From positions 1,973,561-2,037,560 of the forward strand of contig NZ_KE159646.1 in the NCBI RefSeq assembly GCF_000403355.2: 64,000 nucleotides of DNA. The letters are read 5' to 3'. This document shows positions 1,226-27,258 of this stretch, one piece after another (position 1 is the first letter of the stretch; every line of letters begins with the position of its first letter). The stretch is from Adlercreutzia caecimuris B7 (lineage in GTDB: Bacteria; Actinomycetota; Coriobacteriia; Coriobacteriales; Eggerthellaceae). The translations under genes were made by a program, and so were the position numbers. Under the pieces are notes generated by a model. The model searched no databases. It saw only the letters and a program-made list of their open reading frames with translations, and was not told where the DNA came from.

Positions 1226-1795
1226 CTACCGCGTCGCCTTCAGACGGCTGAGCACCTTGCGAGCCTCATTCAGGTTCGCCTCGATGTCGGCGCCTACCAC
1301 GTCCAGGTTCTCGGCGGCTGCGAAGCGGGTCTCGGGGATGCCGAACATGCCGGCGATGCCGCAGAGATACTCGTAACCGTAGTTCATGGCGCTCACCTCG
1401 CCGCCGCCCGTGGTGATGTAGGTGAGGTGCTTCGCGCGGCACAGCCCCTCGCAGCGGCCCTCTTCGGTGTAGTGGAAGGTCATGCCCATAACGGCCACGT
1501 GCTCGATGTAGATCTTCAGCGCCGCGGGAAACGACAAGTCCCAATACGGCGCGCCAATGACGATCTCATCGGCCTCGGCGAACTGCCGACCCAAATCGAA
1601 CATCGGGTCATCGAACTGGCCGTCCTTCTCCAACTGGGCGCGGTAGGCCGCCGACGGACCGTAGTAGGGCTCAAGCTTCAGCTCGGCGAGATTCACCTCC
1701 TCCACGTCGTCGACGCCCTCCAGGTACTCGCGGCACAACGTGAGCGTGCGCGACTGCTCGCCGCGCAGACAGGCATTCACAAACAAAACGGTCAT
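1226..1795 (-). CDS. FMN-dependent NAD(P)H quinone/azo reductase family flavoprotein
   Basis: A 189-residue flavodoxin-fold protein. The stretch GAPYWDLSFPAALKIYIEHV followed by GMTFHYTEEG matches the FMN-binding region of AzoR and NQO-type reductases, and a later TTGGGE loop is also typical. These enzymes pass electrons from NAD(P)H to quinones, nitro or azo compounds in the cytoplasm. I place the start at the ATG at 1795, because GGAGA lies a few bases upstream; an ATG 18 bases further up lacks this. It is divergent from the alcohol dehydrogenase, with a palindrome between them. The substrate is unknown. Confidence 0.8.
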   Translation of the reverse strand: MTVLFVNACLRGEQSRTLTLCREYLEGVDDVEEVNLAELKLEPYYGPSAAYRAQLEKDGQFDDPMFDLGRQFAEADEIVIGAPYWDLSFPAALKIYIEHVAVMGMTFHYTEEGRCEGLCRAKHLTYITTGGGEVSAMNYGYEYLCGIAGMFGIPETRFAAAENLDVVGADIEANLNEARKVLSRLKATR

Positions 1796-1832
1796 GAGCG
1801 TCTCCTTTTCCATGGACGATTATCTTTCCCTA

Positions 1833-1844
1833 CCAGTATACTGG
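1833..1844. promoter_or_regulatory. Perfect palindrome in a divergent promoter region
   Basis: CCAGTATACTGG is a perfect 12-base palindrome between the divergent flavoprotein and alcohol dehydrogenase genes. It contains TATACT on both strands, so it can be a -10 element for either direction as well as an operator half-site pair. The role is inferred from position only. Confidence 0.4.
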
Positions 1845-1916
1845 GCCCTAGGCGTCTCGCGCGTGGGGCTGCACCCTAGCGGCCGGTGCGGGCGCTCTCT
1901 GATGGAAAGGATCCTC

Positions 1917-3089
1917 ATGGAGAACTTCGAATTCGTTTCCCCCACTCATTTCGTGTTCGGCCGCGGCGCCGAGGAGCAGGTCGGTGCCAAGCTGGCCGAA
2001 GCCGGCGCCCGCCGCGTGCTCGTGCATTTCGGCGGCGAGAGCGCCCGGCGCTCGGGACTCATCGATCGCGTAGGCGCCTCGCTCGATGCCGCCGGTATCG
2101 AGCATATCGAGCTGGGCGGCGTGCGCCCGAACCCCGAGATCACGCTGGTGCGCGAGGGCGTGCGGCTGTGCAAGGAAGGCAACGTCGACTGGATTCTGGC
2201 CGTGGGCGGCGGCTCGGTCATCGACTCGGCCAAGGCCATCGCCAACGGCGCCTGCGTCGACTGCGACGTATGGGAGCTCTTCGAGACGAAGGCACTCGAT
2301 CACGACGTGCTGCCCATCGCTGTGGTGCTCACCATTCCAGCTGCCGGTTCCGAGGCCTCGAAGAACACCGTGGTCTCCAACGACGAGCTGGGGCGCAAGA
2401 CCGGCTACGCCAACAACGCTCAGCGCCCGAAGTTCGCCTTCATGAACCCGGAGCTCACCTTCACCCTGCCGCCCTTCCAGACGGCCGCGGGGCTGACCGA
2501 CATGTACTGCCACCTGCTGGAGCGCTTCTTCGACGACGTGGGCGCAGTGCCCGTGACCGACAACCTGAACCTGTCGCTCATGAACACCATCCGCGCCGAG
2601 GCGCCGCGGGTGCTGGCCGATCCGGAGAACTACGACGCCCGCGCGAACATCATGTGGACGGGCATGCTCTGCCACCAGGGACTCGCCGGCGTGGGGCGTC
2701 ACGAGGACTGGGCCACTCACGGACTTGAACACGAGCTGTCGGCGCTCGACCCCGCTATCACCCACGGCGCGGGCCTGGCCGTCATGTTCCCCGCGTGGAT
2801 GGAATACGTGCACAGCGAGAACCCGGCCCGCTTCGCCTTCTACGGCCAGGCAGTGTTCGGGCTTGTGCCCACTGGCGACGTGAACGCCGACGCGCTCTCC
2901 GCCATCGACGAGACCCGCAGCTTCTTCGCGAGCCTGGGAATGCCCACCACCCTGGCCGAGCTGGGCGTGGAAGAAGCCGATATCGAGAAGATGCTGCCCA
3001 CCCTGGCCCAGAACAAGGGCGTGCCCTTCGGCAGCTTCAAGAAGCTGGCCTTGGAAGACGCCGCGGAAATCTACAAACTGGCACTGTAG
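1917..3089 (+). CDS. Iron-containing alcohol dehydrogenase, YqhD/BDH type
   Basis: 390 residues, the usual length for this family. The N-terminus MENFEFVSPTHFVFGRG is the standard YqhD/butanol dehydrogenase opening. GGGSVID at 97-103 binds NAD(P)H. D195, H199, H268 and H283 match the four metal ligands of YqhD. It should interconvert aldehydes and alcohols in the cytoplasm, probably with NADPH. The start was chosen at ATG 1917 because it is preceded by GGAAAGG and opens the conserved domain; the frame stays open upstream but that part has no family resemblance. Confidence 0.9.
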   Translation: MENFEFVSPTHFVFGRGAEEQVGAKLAEAGARRVLVHFGGESARRSGLIDRVGASLDAAGIEHIELGGVRPNPEITLVREGVRLCKEGNVDWILAVGGGSVIDSAKAIANGACVDCDVWELFETKALDHDVLPIAVVLTIPAAGSEASKNTVVSNDELGRKTGYANNAQRPKFAFMNPELTFTLPPFQTAAGLTDMYCHLLERFFDDVGAVPVTDNLNLSLMNTIRAEAPRVLADPENYDARANIMWTGMLCHQGLAGVGRHEDWATHGLEHELSALDPAITHGAGLAVMFPAWMEYVHSENPARFAFYGQAVFGLVPTGDVNADALSAIDETRSFFASLGMPTTLAELGVEEADIEKMLPTLAQNKGVPFGSFKKLALEDAAEIYKLAL

Positions 3090-3201
3090 GAGGCGCCGCC
3101 GCAGAAAGCGCGAACAGGAGCGTGGATCACAGCCCACAGCTTGCGGCTCACAGCTCCCAGCTCGCGGCTCGCGGCCCATAGCTCTCGGCTCGCGCCCCTT
3201 T

Positions 3202-17392: not shown

Positions 17393-18028
17393 CTAGGCGG
17401 GCCTCACGGGAATGCGGAGAACCGTTTTCAGGCGCTCGGGGACAACCCGTCGCGGATCCGAGAGGTAGATCTCGTGGTGGAGGCGCTTCTCACTTTGGTC
17501 GAACCGCAGGCCCTCCGACTCGGCATAGCTTTTCAGCGCGTCGATCGTCGCAGGCTCGTCGTCGTAGGACCCAATGTGCATGCACTGTACGCAGAGCCCC
17601 TCGCCCACCGTGATCATTTCCACCTTCGAGAAGTCAGTTTTTTTCTTGCGCGTGGCCTCCTGCACTGCCCAGTCGAACACGGCGGGCGTTACGAACTCGG
17701 GCAGCCGGATGCAGCTTATCCACTCAAGTTCGGCTTTGCGCTTCGGGTCCAGCTGCTCGATGGGCTCCGGAAAAGTCCAGAAGCCTTCCAGCGGCGGAAC
17801 GACGTAGGGCGCATACCCCTCGATGTCGTAACCCGACTTGGGTGACATCTTGATGGTGAAGGAGATGCCGTAGAGCATCTGGAGGGCACGCTGGTATTCG
17901 CCGTCTTCTTCGTTCGGATCCCCTTTACCGCGCACCGCCACATAGTTGATCGGCGGCATCTCTATGAGAGCCGGCTTCTTCGACGGCTGATAGATGTCCT
18001 TGTACTCTTTCTTGTAGTCGAACGGCAT
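17393..18028 (-). CDS. GyrI-like small-molecule-binding protein
   Basis: 211 residues. It opens MPFDYKKEYKDIYQPSKKPA, then PPINYVAVRGKGDPN and the C-terminal KTVLRIPVRP, which together mark the GyrI-like family of ligand-binding proteins (SOUL/GyrI fold). They bind hydrophobic small molecules, and some have hydrolase activity on drugs. It is cytoplasmic. It lies 72 bases after an AraC-GyrI regulator gene on the same strand, so the pair may sense and bind the same kind of compound. Confidence 0.85.
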   Translation of the reverse strand: MPFDYKKEYKDIYQPSKKPALIEMPPINYVAVRGKGDPNEEDGEYQRALQMLYGISFTIKMSPKSGYDIEGYAPYVVPPLEGFWTFPEPIEQLDPKRKAELEWISCIRLPEFVTPAVFDWAVQEATRKKKTDFSKVEMITVGEGLCVQCMHIGSYDDEPATIDALKSYAESEGLRFDQSEKRLHHEIYLSDPRRVVPERLKTVLRIPVRPA

Positions 18029-18100: not shown

Positions 18101-18958
18101 TTAGGCCTTGACCACGGGAAGCCAGACCTCGCTTTTGCTGTCCGGTGCGGTCATGGCCGGCGTGAAGTACCTCTCGACGTCGGTGCCCGAGGCCCACTGG
18201 TACCCAGAGGCCGGCAGCCACTCGGCGAGGATGCGATGCCACAGCTCGTTCATGGCATCGGGCATCGGCCCGACGCACTCGAAGACCGCGTAGGTGGCCG
18301 CCTCGACGACGCGCTCCCCCATGCCCTCGGGGCACGGTTGGCCTGTGGCCACGCAGGCCATGTAGCAGTCGAACTCGCCGTCGTCGCAGAACTGGACGCC
18401 CAACAGGCCCGCAGGCTCGCTGCCGTCCATCAGGCTCAGCACCTTGTGGACGTCCGCCCCGATCTTAGCCCAGTACTCGGTGGCCTTCGCCCCGGCGCTC
18501 TCGACGTCCCATGTCCCGTTATCGGACGGTATCCCGACCACGCGGAAAGACGGCTGCTCGATGATCTTGTAGTCCATTGCCTCTTCTCCCTTCACGGATA
18601 GCGTGAACGCGAGGCGTGGGTGGAGCTTGAGCGTAGTGCCGGGCAGGCGCGCCTCACTCGGCGACGCGCCGTGCACGCTTCGAAACGCCCTGCTGAACGA
18701 CGTCGGAGAGTCGTACCCGTACCTCAGGGCCACGTCTATCACCTTCGCATCGGTTGACGCAAGGTCGTATGCGGCGCTCGTCATCGCCCGGCGCCTGACG
18801 TACTCCGAAAGCGTCACGCCCGCCAGGTAGGGGAACATCCGCTGGAGCTGGTACTGGGAGCATCCGGCGATGCGGGAGAGCTCCTTCAGGTCGAGCGTCC
18901 CGTCCAGGTGCTCCTCAACGTAGCCCATGGCTCGGTTCAAGTTCTCAAGCTGGCTCAT
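18101..18958 (-). CDS. AraC-family regulator with GyrI-like effector domain
   Basis: 285 residues from ATG 18958 (AAAGGAGG upstream). The N-terminal ~105 hold two helix-turn-helix units (LKELSRIAGCSQYQLQRMF, then VALRYGYDSPTSFSRAF), the AraC DNA-binding pattern. The C-terminal ~160 are a GyrI-like ligand domain ending SKSEVWLPV. This is the Rob/BltR-like layout in which a drug or lipid-like ligand controls transcription. The likely target is the GyrI-like gene behind it. Confidence 0.88.
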   Translation of the reverse strand: MSQLENLNRAMGYVEEHLDGTLDLKELSRIAGCSQYQLQRMFPYLAGVTLSEYVRRRAMTSAAYDLASTDAKVIDVALRYGYDSPTSFSRAFRSVHGASPSEARLPGTTLKLHPRLAFTLSVKGEEAMDYKIIEQPSFRVVGIPSDNGTWDVESAGAKATEYWAKIGADVHKVLSLMDGSEPAGLLGVQFCDDGEFDCYMACVATGQPCPEGMGERVVEAATYAVFECVGPMPDAMNELWHRILAEWLPASGYQWASGTDVERYFTPAMTAPDSKSEVWLPVVKA

Positions 18959-19181
18959 CCACGCCTCCTTTCGCATCCAGGTTACCGGGCAGGAGAAGGC
19001 GCGTCCTCTCATATCCCGTGCGAGTATTGGCTGGGCGCGACCACGCATCACGCCCGAACCGGCAGCATAGCTTAACATTGCAAAGCATGCAGAAGAAACC
19101 CTAGGCATCGCGCCCCAAAGGGCATATCCTTGCGCGATGGTTATACTTGAAGGAGTCTAATCTGTTCGGAAGGGGAGGAAG

Positions 19182-25544: not shown

Positions 25545-25553
25545 TGCTATAAT
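25545..25553 (+). promoter_or_regulatory. Extended -10 promoter of the ABC-F leader
   Basis: TGCTATAAT, a consensus extended -10. The transcript would begin near 25560, giving a leader of about 210 bases. Confidence 0.6.
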
Positions 25554-25615
25554 CGTGGCACCTTGTCATTCAGCGGAGCCTTTGGCAAGTTCCGCTTCGA
25601 GTTAGGTTAGGTTTG

Positions 25616-25627
25616 ATGAAGAACTAG
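25616..25627 (+). CDS. Putative three-residue leader peptide MKN
   Basis: ATG AAG AAC TAG, preceded by two AGG words. Its stop codon ends on the first base of the hairpin that follows. Very short upstream ORFs are known in ribosome-mediated attenuators of ABC-F resistance genes. Function inferred from position only. Confidence 0.4.
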   Translation: MKN

Positions 25628-25713
25628 CGATGCCCATTCGGGCGCCCCTTCGACCATTTCCGCATTCCCGGTCGCGCTTTCAGGGTGCCGCATCGCCTTT
25701 GCTTCTTCTTCCC
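25627..25713 (+). promoter_or_regulatory. Putative attenuator hairpin upstream of ABC-F gene
   Basis: GCGATGC (25627-25633) pairs with GCATCGC (25690-25696). GGCGCCC (25641-25647) pairs with GGGTGCC (25683-25689) with one G-U pair. CGACC (25651-25655) pairs with GGTCG (25670-25674). The stem is followed by the T-rich stretch 25697-25713. A ribosome paused on the MKN codons would cover the first strand and stop the hairpin from forming. Confidence 0.55.
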
Positions 25714-25770
25714 AGAACCGACATACCGCGAGCCTCACCTCGGCGCGACCTCCTTCCCAAGGAGCTCGCC

Positions 25771-27258
25771 ATGCAACTGAATCTCACCTCCATCAGCTAC
25801 ACCTATCCCGGCGGTACTGCGCCCGCGCTTACCGATGTGAGCGCCACTTTTCCCGTTGGCTGGACGGGCATCATCGGCGACAACGGGTGCGGCAAGAGCA
25901 CCCTCGCCCGCATCGCCGCGCGCCTTCTTCAACCCGATGCCGGTTCGGTGAGCCCGCAGCTGTTCTCCGCCTACTGCCAGCAGGACTCCACCCAAGCGCC
26001 GCCCAACCTGGCCGACCTCGCGTCGGATTGGGGTCAGGACGGCCAACGTATCCGGCGGCTTTTGCACTTGGAAGACGAGTGGTTCTGGCGCTACGAGACG
26101 CTCTCGGGCGGCCAGCGGAAGCGACTCCAAATCGCCTGCGCTCTCTTTACGAGCCCCGACGTGCTGGTCATGGACGAGCCGACCAACGACTTAGATGCCG
26201 TGACGCGCGACGTTGTGAAGGGAGCGCTTTCTAATTTTGGCGGCATCGGCATCCTCATATCCCACGACCGCGATCTGCTGGACAGCCTCGTCGGCCAGAG
26301 CCTGGTGTGCGAGAATCGCCGCTGGGTGATGCGCCCGGGCGGCTACTCGAAGGCCAGTTGCCAAGCGGAAAGCGAGAGGGCCTCCGCCCTTCGCCAGCGC
26401 GAAAAGGCCGCACATGAGGCAAAGCGCCTGAAAGCAGAGGCGCAACGTCGAAGTGAGGAGGCTGCCCGGCAACGGGGCAGGCGGAGCAAGCGCAACCTGG
26501 CCAAGGGCGACAGCGACGGCCGCGAGAAAATCGGGCGGGCCATCGTCTCCGGAAAAGACGGCGTTGCGGGAAGGCTCTCGGCAACCATGGACCGGCGGCT
26601 CGCCCAAGCCGAGGGGGCTCTTGCGGGGCAGTTCGTCGCAAAGCGCTATGAGCACCGCATCAGCGTATTCGGCGAGGCAACGCGAGCGCCGTTCGTGGCC
26701 CACTTGGAAGCGAAGGCCCTGCGCGCGGGCGAGTTCGCCATCGAGGTGCCGGAGCTTTGGATTGGACCGACCGAGCACGTGGTGCTGACAGGCGAGAATG
26801 GCACGGGCAAGAGCCTGGTCGTGCGCGCGGCGCTTGCATCGGCTCCCGAAAGCGTCCGCATGGCCTTCGTGCCCCAGGACGTCGGAGTTGGCGAGCGCGA
26901 GCGCGCGCTGGGCCAACTCCGCGAGCAATCCCCGGAGCGGCGCGGTCGCATCCTTTCCATTGTGGCTCAGCTGAACTCAGACCCCGACAGGCTGCTCGAT
27001 GGCGACGATATGAGCCCCGGCGAACTGCGCAAGCTCCTGCTCGCCGAGCAGCTGGTGCAAGAGCCGAACTTCCTCGTGCTGGACGAGCCCACCAACCACC
27101 TGGACGTGGGCTCCATCGAAGCGCTCCAACGGATGCTCGCGGATTTCCCCGGTGCGGTTCTCCTCGTCACCCACGACCGGCAGCTGGCCGACGCAGTCAC
27201 GCAAACTGCCTGGCACACGGAGCGATGCGACGGCATTGCCAAACTGTGCGTTCGCTGA
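25771..27258 (+). CDS. ABC-F family ATPase, possible ribosome-protection resistance protein
   Basis: 495 residues with two ABC domains and no membrane part. First site: GDNGCGKST (36-44), LSGGQRKRLQIA (111-122), MDEPTNDLD. Second site: GENGTGKS, MSPGELRKLLLAEQL, LDEPTNHLDV. A charged linker of about 90 residues rich in Lys/Arg joins them, as in Lsa/Vga-type ABC-F proteins that displace antibiotics from the ribosome. AAGGAG precedes ATG 25771. The attenuator-like leader favours a resistance role. A housekeeping ABC-F role cannot be excluded from sequence alone. Confidence 0.85.
   Translation: MQLNLTSISYTYPGGTAPALTDVSATFPVGWTGIIGDNGCGKSTLARIAARLLQPDAGSVSPQLFSAYCQQDSTQAPPNLADLASDWGQDGQRIRRLLHLEDEWFWRYETLSGGQRKRLQIACALFTSPDVLVMDEPTNDLDAVTRDVVKGALSNFGGIGILISHDRDLLDSLVGQSLVCENRRWVMRPGGYSKASCQAESERASALRQREKAAHEAKRLKAEAQRRSEEAARQRGRRSKRNLAKGDSDGREKIGRAIVSGKDGVAGRLSATMDRRLAQAEGALAGQFVAKRYEHRISVFGEATRAPFVAHLEAKALRAGEFAIEVPELWIGPTEHVVLTGENGTGKSLVVRAALASAPESVRMAFVPQDVGVGERERALGQLREQSPERRGRILSIVAQLNSDPDRLLDGDDMSPGELRKLLLAEQLVQEPNFLVLDEPTNHLDVGSIEALQRMLADFPGAVLLVTHDRQLADAVTQTAWHTERCDGIAKLCVR

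What the first reader, a model, noticed from the sequence alone, without database searches (positions are those of the whole stretch)
25545..25770. Second attenuator-like leader, upstream of the ABC-F gene
An extended -10 promoter, a three-codon ORF (MKN) and a long stem with a T-rich tail precede the ABC-F gene. The hairpin's first strand begins at the ORF stop codon, so a stalled ribosome would prevent terminator formation. Two independent leaders of this kind in one window is striking.
Basis: partly seen in the sequence, partly recalled or inferred. Interest (0 to 1): 0.7.

Follow-up and report, generated by a model that had tools for sequence, protein, structure and literature searches.

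The report
Ribosome-stall RNA switch before ABC-F gene
A short RNA leader with a three-amino-acid mini-gene, conserved across related bacteria of one order, most likely keeps a ribosome-protection-like gene silent until a stalled ribosome refolds the leader; the general trick is known, but this RNA family and its wiring seem undescribed.

Summary
All its parts are in the sequence: an extended -10 (25545-25553), ATG-AAG-AAC-TAG (25616-25627), and a long stem that starts at the stop codon (25627-25696). A covariance model built from it matches 60 of 396 genomes of the class at E<=1e-8, all in one order. ABC-F follows in 66 of 70 leaders read, and 45 of 45 non-redundant leaders have a three-codon uORF at the same place. 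The latter strand shares bases with the hairpin hiding the ABC-F Shine-Dalgarno in 39 of 39 leaders. The T-rich tail is not conserved (5 of 44), and compact relatives pair the uORF stop with the ABC-F ribosome-binding region. So the ribosome-stalling idea holds, but the output is most likely translation, not a terminator. It works like the vmlR and cplR leaders, in another lineage and architecture. Antibiotic induction is inferred, not shown; folding energies support it only weakly.

The parts
25545..25553 (+). extended -10 promoter element TGC-TATAAT; start of transcription expected about 25560
   Evidence: sequence; a -10-like hexamer (>=4 of 6 to TATAAT) starts 17-25 nt before the leader model in 44 of 44 non-redundant leaders, with TG in 21 of 44 (no chance control run)
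25572..25596 (+). 5' hairpin P1 (AGCGGAGCCUUUGGCAAGUUCCGCU), conserved, role unknown
   Evidence: 91.3% of cells paired, 31 double-change cells against 10.6 when whole strands are swapped, 0 of 2000 swaps reach it
25616..25627 (+). three-codon uORF ATG AAG AAC TAG (Met-Lys-Asn-stop)
   Evidence: exactly three sense codons at the same place in 45 of 45 non-redundant leaders; codon 2 Lys in 32 and Arg in 11
25627..25633 (+). helix A, 5' strand GCGATGC, beginning at the uORF stop
   Evidence: 97.4% paired, 9 double-change cells against 1.1 on strand swap, 0 of 2000
25690..25696 (+). helix A, 3' strand GCATCGC
   Evidence: as above
25670..25677 (+). S, the anti-sequestor strand GGTCGCGC, inside the loop closed by helix A
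   Evidence: pairs with S': 94.1% of cells, 46 double-change cells against 12.4 on strand swap, 0 of 2000
25743..25750 (+). S' GCGCGACC, lower part of the strand that hides the ABC-F Shine-Dalgarno / start
   Evidence: shares bases with the Shine-Dalgarno hairpin in 39 of 39 leaders; partner of S
25750..25755 (+). anti-Shine-Dalgarno CTCCTT
   Evidence: hairpin with 25759-25764, loop CCC
25759..25764 (+). ABC-F Shine-Dalgarno AAGGAG, hidden in the hairpin
   Evidence: Shine-Dalgarno core paired upstream in 37 of 39 leaders; 18.9 expected when the 5' side is shuffled
25771..27258 (+). ABC-F ATPase gene (495 aa), the gene presumed to be regulated
   Evidence: NCBIfam ribosomal protection-like ABC-F NF000355, 264 bits, below its cut-off of 380; model pLDDT 88, LsaA TM 0.82/0.82

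Best explanation
The leader is a ribosome-controlled translational attenuator. Without drug, ribosomes read MKN and leave. Helix A (25627-25633 with 25690-25696) then forms and traps strand S, while S' with the anti-Shine-Dalgarno hides the ABC-F Shine-Dalgarno (OFF). A ribosome stalled at the start, inside or at the stop of the tripeptide uORF covers the 5' strand of helix A. S is released, pairs with S' (25743-25750), and takes away the lower half of the hairpin over the Shine-Dalgarno, so ABC-F is translated (ON). Supported by comparative data: the promoter-uORF-helix-hairpin layout, the pairings, and the mutual exclusion of S:S' with the Shine-Dalgarno hairpin. Inferred: that a stalled ribosome is the switch, that pleuromutilin, lincosamide or streptogramin A type drugs stall it, that ABC-F protects against them, and any role of the 5' hairpin.
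For: Three-codon uORF at one place in 45 of 45 leaders, codon 2 Lys/Arg in 43. ABC-F follows in 66 of 70 leaders (duplicate L107 left out). Covariation of S:S' (two positions are GC/AU 19/19 and CG/UA 17/17), helix A and P1: in each, 0 of 2000 strand swaps reach the number of double-change cells. S' shares bases with the Shine-Dalgarno hairpin in 39 of 39, and the Shine-Dalgarno core is hidden in 37 of 39. Compact relatives pair the uORF stop with the ribosome-binding region, e.g. L105 UAGCAAUCC:GGAUUGCUA; over 14 leaders of three other layouts the mean stem is 7.3 against 5.6 on swap, 0 of 500. Masking the uORF like a stalled ribosome lowers the cost of opening the Shine-Dalgarno by >=2 kcal in 13 of 45 (initiation) or 11 of 45 (stop) and raises it in 1 of 45; the average of masks elsewhere does so in 2 of 45; window 9.8 to 6.0. 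P(S:S') in the window goes 0 to 0.85. The closest tested systems use the same kind of uORF (PMC9226507, PMC10201436).
Against: The unpaired probability of the Shine-Dalgarno hardly changes with a stalled ribosome (mean 0.27 to 0.30; up in 11, down in 7 of 55), because a short hairpin can remain. In 31 of 45 leaders neither mask lowers the opening cost by 2 kcal, and in 34 of 45 at least one of the masks placed elsewhere lowers it as far as the better uORF mask, though single masks elsewhere do so by >=2 kcal only 10% of the time on average. P(S:S') rises in 16 of 45 and falls in 5. S:S' shows no more pair types than swapped strands (11 against 11.6). On the ABC-F tree few S:S' changes are independent: at the best position 3.6 of 6 pairs go the same way and 0 the other, median p 0.125. 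No expression or drug data exist here.
Confidence: 0.75

Rival explanations
1. Transcription attenuation: helix A is an intrinsic terminator that a stalled ribosome prevents.
For: In the window helix A is strong and followed by CTTTGCTTCTTCTT, 5 T in 8. vmlR and cplR combine a terminator with Shine-Dalgarno hiding (PMC9226507, PMC10201436).
Against: >=5 T in 8 after the helix in only 5 of 44 leaders; 1 terminator-like site in 4 kb where 2.9 are expected. In compact relatives the uORF-stop strand pairs with the ribosome-binding region. It does not explain the S:S' covariation.
Confidence: 0.12
2. Mixed or Rho-dependent control: the untranslated pyrimidine-rich stretch behind helix A invites Rho when ABC-F is not translated, so termination follows from the translational switch (could hold together with the best explanation).
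For: Pyrimidine-rich spacer behind helix A, 25697-25740 (read by eye). Not otherwise tested.
Against: Distance from the leader model to the gene varies from 8 to 188 nt among relatives, and the two overlap in L105.
Confidence: 0.2
3. A ligand-binding riboswitch: the conserved 5' hairpin (or the multi-branch structure of the second leader family) binds a small molecule, and the uORF is only its output.
For: P1 apex GCCUUUGGCAAG is conserved beyond what a plain stem needs in most leaders; the second family has a conserved core. No Rfam family matches the leaders tested.
Against: P1 apex differs in several relatives with intact uORFs (L002, L056, L073, L078, L079), while the three-codon length of the uORF does not. 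I found no pairing from P1 to the switch, by eye only.
Confidence: 0.07
4. Not a regulator: ordinary 5' UTR conserved by recent common descent or horizontal transfer.
For: The leader+ABC-F block appears to have moved between families (L044/L045, 97.9% identity with unlike upstream flank).
Against: Compensating changes in three helices among leaders whose ABC-F proteins are 45-75% identical to the window's, and a fixed three-codon ORF while spacers drift.
Confidence: 0.03

Closest known systems
vmlR leader of Bacillus subtilis, uORF(MIN) (PMC9226507; passages and section 23 read)
   Same: Three-codon uORF, alternative RNA structures, a hairpin over the ABC-F Shine-Dalgarno undone by an alternative pairing.
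   Different: vmlR also has an intrinsic terminator and pause sites, and its uORF lies inside the first stem-loop. Here no terminator is conserved, the uORF follows a conserved hairpin, and the genomes are of another lineage.
cplR leader of Clostridioides difficile, uORF Met-Arg-Ile, consensus MR[I/M] (PMC10201436; sections 21 and 22 and passages read)
   Same: Tripeptide uORF with a basic second residue; the Shine-Dalgarno is hidden, and translational control suffices to keep the polyU mutant off without drug.
   Different: In cplR the terminator stem itself hides the Shine-Dalgarno. In the window a separate hairpin does, linked to helix A by S:S'. Compact relatives (L105, L080-L087) resemble cplR more.
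lmrC leader of Streptomyces lincolnensis (PMC8546547; passages read)
   Same: Drug-controlled leader of an ABC-F gene in an actinobacterium.
   Different: Controlled by a premature terminator whose formation seems to need translation of uORF2, as that paper reports.
ermC-type translational attenuators (recalled; no paper on ermC was read)
   Same: Stalled ribosome on a leader ORF frees a downstream Shine-Dalgarno through alternative helices.
   Different: Other gene, longer leader peptide, no sequence relation tested.

Membership tests
uORF-dependent attenuators of ABC-F resistance genes (vmlR/cplR kind) | short uORF between promoter and ABC-F gene | tested here: met
   45 of 45 non-redundant leaders, three codons; AGG-type Shine-Dalgarno before it by eye; that it is translated was not tested
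uORF-dependent attenuators of ABC-F resistance genes (vmlR/cplR kind) | ABC-F gene downstream | tested here: met
   66 of 70 leaders read; 30 of 30 fetched loci of the second leader family
uORF-dependent attenuators of ABC-F resistance genes (vmlR/cplR kind) | two mutually exclusive structures, one hiding the Shine-Dalgarno or ending transcription | tested here: met
   S:S' covaries and S' shares bases with the Shine-Dalgarno hairpin in 39 of 39; energetic support weak
uORF-dependent attenuators of ABC-F resistance genes (vmlR/cplR kind) | intrinsic terminator in the leader (vmlR, cplR, lmrC) | tested here: not met
   no conserved U-tract (5 of 44), scan not above chance. So filed as working like this kind, not as a member of the terminator-bearing subgroup
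uORF-dependent attenuators of ABC-F resistance genes (vmlR/cplR kind) | drug-induced ribosome stalling and induction | not testable with these tools
   needs toeprinting and reporters
antibiotic-resistance (ARE) ABC-F proteins | match to a resistance ABC-F family model above its cut-off | tested here: not met
   NF000355 264 bits against cut-off 380; the other resistance families among the 25 listed are also below theirs
antibiotic-resistance (ARE) ABC-F proteins | two ABC domains joined by a long helical linker | tested here: met
   helices 192-237 and 262-286; LsaA TM 0.82/0.82, VmlR 0.79/0.73, but housekeeping ABC-Fs (YbiT 0.76, EttA about 0.7) also match, so this does not separate the two kinds
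any Rfam family | covariance-model match | tested here: not met
   0 matches in the window at gathering score; no leader match at E<=5 in 10 loci

The most novel reading that the evidence does not exclude
The conserved 5' structures ahead of the uORF (hairpin P1 here, a predicted three-way junction in the second family) are not passive. They act on the ribosome that initiates at the tiny uORF, for example by positioning or slowing it, so that these leaders are composite sensors: a structured RNA module plus a minimal M-(K/R)-X stalling site, evolved in two unlike RNA forms before one orthologous ABC-F gene.
Probability: 0.13. Interest if true: 0.78.

Novelty: new variant of a known kind. Interest (0 to 1): 0.55.

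Why it matters
It gives two RNA leader families without a known match (R1 here, R2 in related genomes) before one ABC-F gene, together in 101 of 396 genomes searched in the class. Inducible ribosome protection may thus be common there. The uORF is M-(K/R)-X-stop in 43 of 45 leaders, like cplR MR[I/M] and VmlR2 MK[L/Q] in other bacteria (PMC10201436). That paper calls for a study of how uORF sequence relates to inducing drug; this set of natural variants (MKN, MRN, MRG, MRA, MKF, MRIR, MRIC and others) makes that testable.

Tried and rejected
Intrinsic terminator: rejected as the main output. The longer in-frame ORF start at 25630 was rejected as the ABC-F start: it lies inside helix A, and relatives' spacers differ in length without keeping frame. 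The equilibrium unpaired probability of the Shine-Dalgarno gave no clear signal; the opening cost gave a weak one. In one search the helix scored was the longest complement, which in some leaders is not the homologous S:S'. A tree-based test of S:S' had too few independent changes to be significant. The strand-swap test on 28 leaders of the second family was uninformative (7.11 against 7.14, 2978 of 5000) because they are nearly alike; two relatives with stop TAA (L205, L217) show the matching change by eye. The search for related loci in genome contigs kept only remote ABC proteins, best identity 37%, so no organism names were obtained. No plasmid match to the protein at E<=1e-60. Papers: the rows listed (some lists capped, e.g. 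15 of 1,265 and 15 of 73) held nothing on leaders of Coriobacteriia ABC-F genes; this covers only the held open-licence library and those words, and the name Coriobacteriia for the window's group is my guess, from no call.

Full report
What is there. The window belongs to a 2.96 Mb genome; the relatives searched span one order. Upstream of an ABC-F gene (ATG 25771) lie an extended -10 (25545-25553), a 5' hairpin (25572-25596), ATG AAG AAC TAG (25616-25627), a long stem whose first strand starts at the stop codon (25627-25633 with 25690-25696), a spacer, and a hairpin CTCCTT-CCC-AAGGAG over the ABC-F Shine-Dalgarno. By folding energy or by a terminator scan alone nothing here stands out from chance, so the case rests on relatives.

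Conservation. Searching 60 genomes (the window's own among them) with the ABC-F protein and reading the upstream DNA showed the same leader in 12 of the 28 loci L001-L028. Four more have a sister form (uORF MKF, MRF or MKL), six another RNA architecture (uORF MRIR, MRIC, MRIF or MGIR), and two a fourth form (MRL). One is a candidate (L014) and three show none (L026, L028, and L021, where only 183 nt upstream are on the contig) (classed by eye). A covariance model R1 from 12 leaders was run on 396 genomes of the class: 96 match at E<=0.01, where about four chance matches are expected, and 60 match at E<=1e-8, all of these in the window's order. In 296 genomes of the phylum the best match outside that order is 27 bits. 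Of the 72 matches at E<=3e-5, 70 places were read; ABC-F follows in 66. The four without it (L032, L069, L085, L086) look decayed or partial. Clustering at 90% left 44 leaders, 45 with the compact L105.

The uORF. All 45 carry exactly three sense codons at the same place; codon 2 is Lys in 32 and Arg in 11 (exceptions L091 Glu, L070 Leu), codon 3 is Asn in 31, the start is ATG in 41, and the stop is TAG in 40 and TAA in 5. In L012, L027 and L063 the stop is TAA and the opposite strand of helix A ends in TTA.

The switch. Over the 39 leaders of the window's layout I counted pairs and compared them with 2000 swaps of whole 3' strands between leaders. Helix A: 97.4% paired, 9 double-change cells against 1.1. 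Hairpin P1: 91.3%, 31 against 10.6. S (25670-25677) with S' (25743-25750): 94.1%, 46 against 12.4. No swap reached any of these three cell counts. The number of pair types at S:S' is not raised (11 against 11.6). Sliding the partner by 1-3 bases drops S:S' to 29-56%. S sits inside the loop of helix A; S' is the lower part of the strand that hides the ABC-F Shine-Dalgarno, and shares bases with that hairpin in 39 of 39. In leaders with S' GCAUGG it even pairs with the start codon region. S:S' and the hiding hairpin therefore exclude each other. On the ABC-F tree the number of independent changes is small and the sign test is not significant.

Other layouts make the same point. In L105 the uORF stop strand UAGCAAUCC pairs base for base with GGAUUGCUA over the Shine-Dalgarno and start of ABC-F. 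In L080-L087 the 3' strand of helix A abuts the Shine-Dalgarno. In the MRIR and MRL forms the uORF stop strand again pairs near the ribosome-binding site. Over these 14 leaders the mean stem is 7.3 bp against 5.6 on swap (0 of 500), energy -12.7 against -8.8 (0 of 5000). A model R2 of the MRIR form matches 41 of 396 genomes at E<=2e-10, none of them among the 60 of R1. All 30 loci fetched have ABC-F downstream; 28 have a four-codon uORF ending in TAG, and the other two read MRIR with TAA by eye. The swap test on the 28 is uninformative because they are alike.

Energetics. Blocking the uORF region as a stalled ribosome would raises P(S:S') in the window leader from 0 to 0.85; over 45 long leaders of three layouts it rises by more than 0.2 in 16 and falls in 5. 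The cost of opening the Shine-Dalgarno falls by at least 2 kcal in 13 of 45 (initiation) or 11 of 45 (stop), 14 of 45 for either, and rises in 1 for each mask. The average of masks elsewhere lowers it so in 2 of 45, but in 34 of 45 some mask elsewhere does as well as the better uORF mask; single masks elsewhere reach 2 kcal 10% of the time. In the window 9.8 becomes 6.0 or 6.3. Ten leaders of two other layouts gain more (6 or 7 of 10). The plain unpaired probability hardly moves. This is weak support, from a model without kinetics or pseudoknots.

Termination. After helix A, 5 of 44 leaders have 5 or more T in 8 bases; the window is one of them. A weak or Rho-linked contribution in this genome is not excluded.

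The protein. NCBIfam's ribosomal-protection-like ABC-F model matches at 264 bits, under its cut-off of 380. The predicted structure (pLDDT 88) has two ABC domains and a long helical linker. It fits LsaA (TM 0.82/0.82), VmlR (0.79/0.73) and VmlR2 (0.78/0.68) about as well as or better than housekeeping ABC-Fs such as YbiT (0.76/0.71) and EttA (about 0.7). A resistance role is likely, not shown.

Comparison. B. subtilis vmlR uses a tripeptide uORF (MIN), a terminator and a hairpin over the Shine-Dalgarno (PMC9226507: passages and section 23 read). C. difficile cplR uses MR[I/M] with translational and transcriptional control together, and VmlR2 has MK[L/Q] (PMC10201436: sections 21, 22 and passages read). 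lmrC in Streptomyces uses a terminator (PMC8546547: passages). The present leaders work like these. They differ in lineage, in the conserved 5' hairpin, in the S:S' relay and in lacking a conserved terminator. Rfam 15 gave no match. The recurring M-(K/R)-X in unlike RNAs points to selection on the second codon; that reading is mine.

Verdict. Observation confirmed; stalling interpretation supported by comparison; terminator reading replaced by translational control. New variant of a known kind.

Noticed in passing
L032 (own genome, G000:C1:2300532-2300654, minus strand): A second, decayed-looking copy of the leader (66 bits, uORF TTG GAT TAC TAG) with no ABC-F behind it, close to ORFs that look like an excisionase and an integrase (named by eye).
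   Followed up: partly
L191-L220, model R2: A second conserved leader RNA (predicted three-way junction, conserved core) with a four-codon uORF MRIR/MRIC/MGIR/MRIF before the orthologous ABC-F gene; 41 of 396 class genomes at E<=2e-10, none of them among the 60 strong ones of R1.
   Followed up: partly
L044 and L045, bases 1469-3129 (read on the leader's strand): Leader plus ABC-F shared at 97.9% between genomes of two families, the shared block beginning about 10 bases before the -10 with no similarity upstream at E<=1e-10: the module seems to move as a unit.
   Followed up: partly
L069 (G303): A leader remnant whose uORF stop codon is changed and whose 3' part is replaced; a stretch resembling an HxlR-type regulator follows (read by eye).
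   Followed up: no
L188, 1532-1660: A contig of the viral collection (32.6 kb) seems to end just behind a complete leader (92 bits); no ABC-F on the stretch held.
   Followed up: no
window 17396-18028 and 18101-18985: Two neighbouring GyrI-like ligand-binding proteins, one joined to an AraC-type DNA-binding domain: a possible small-molecule-sensing pair.
   Followed up: no
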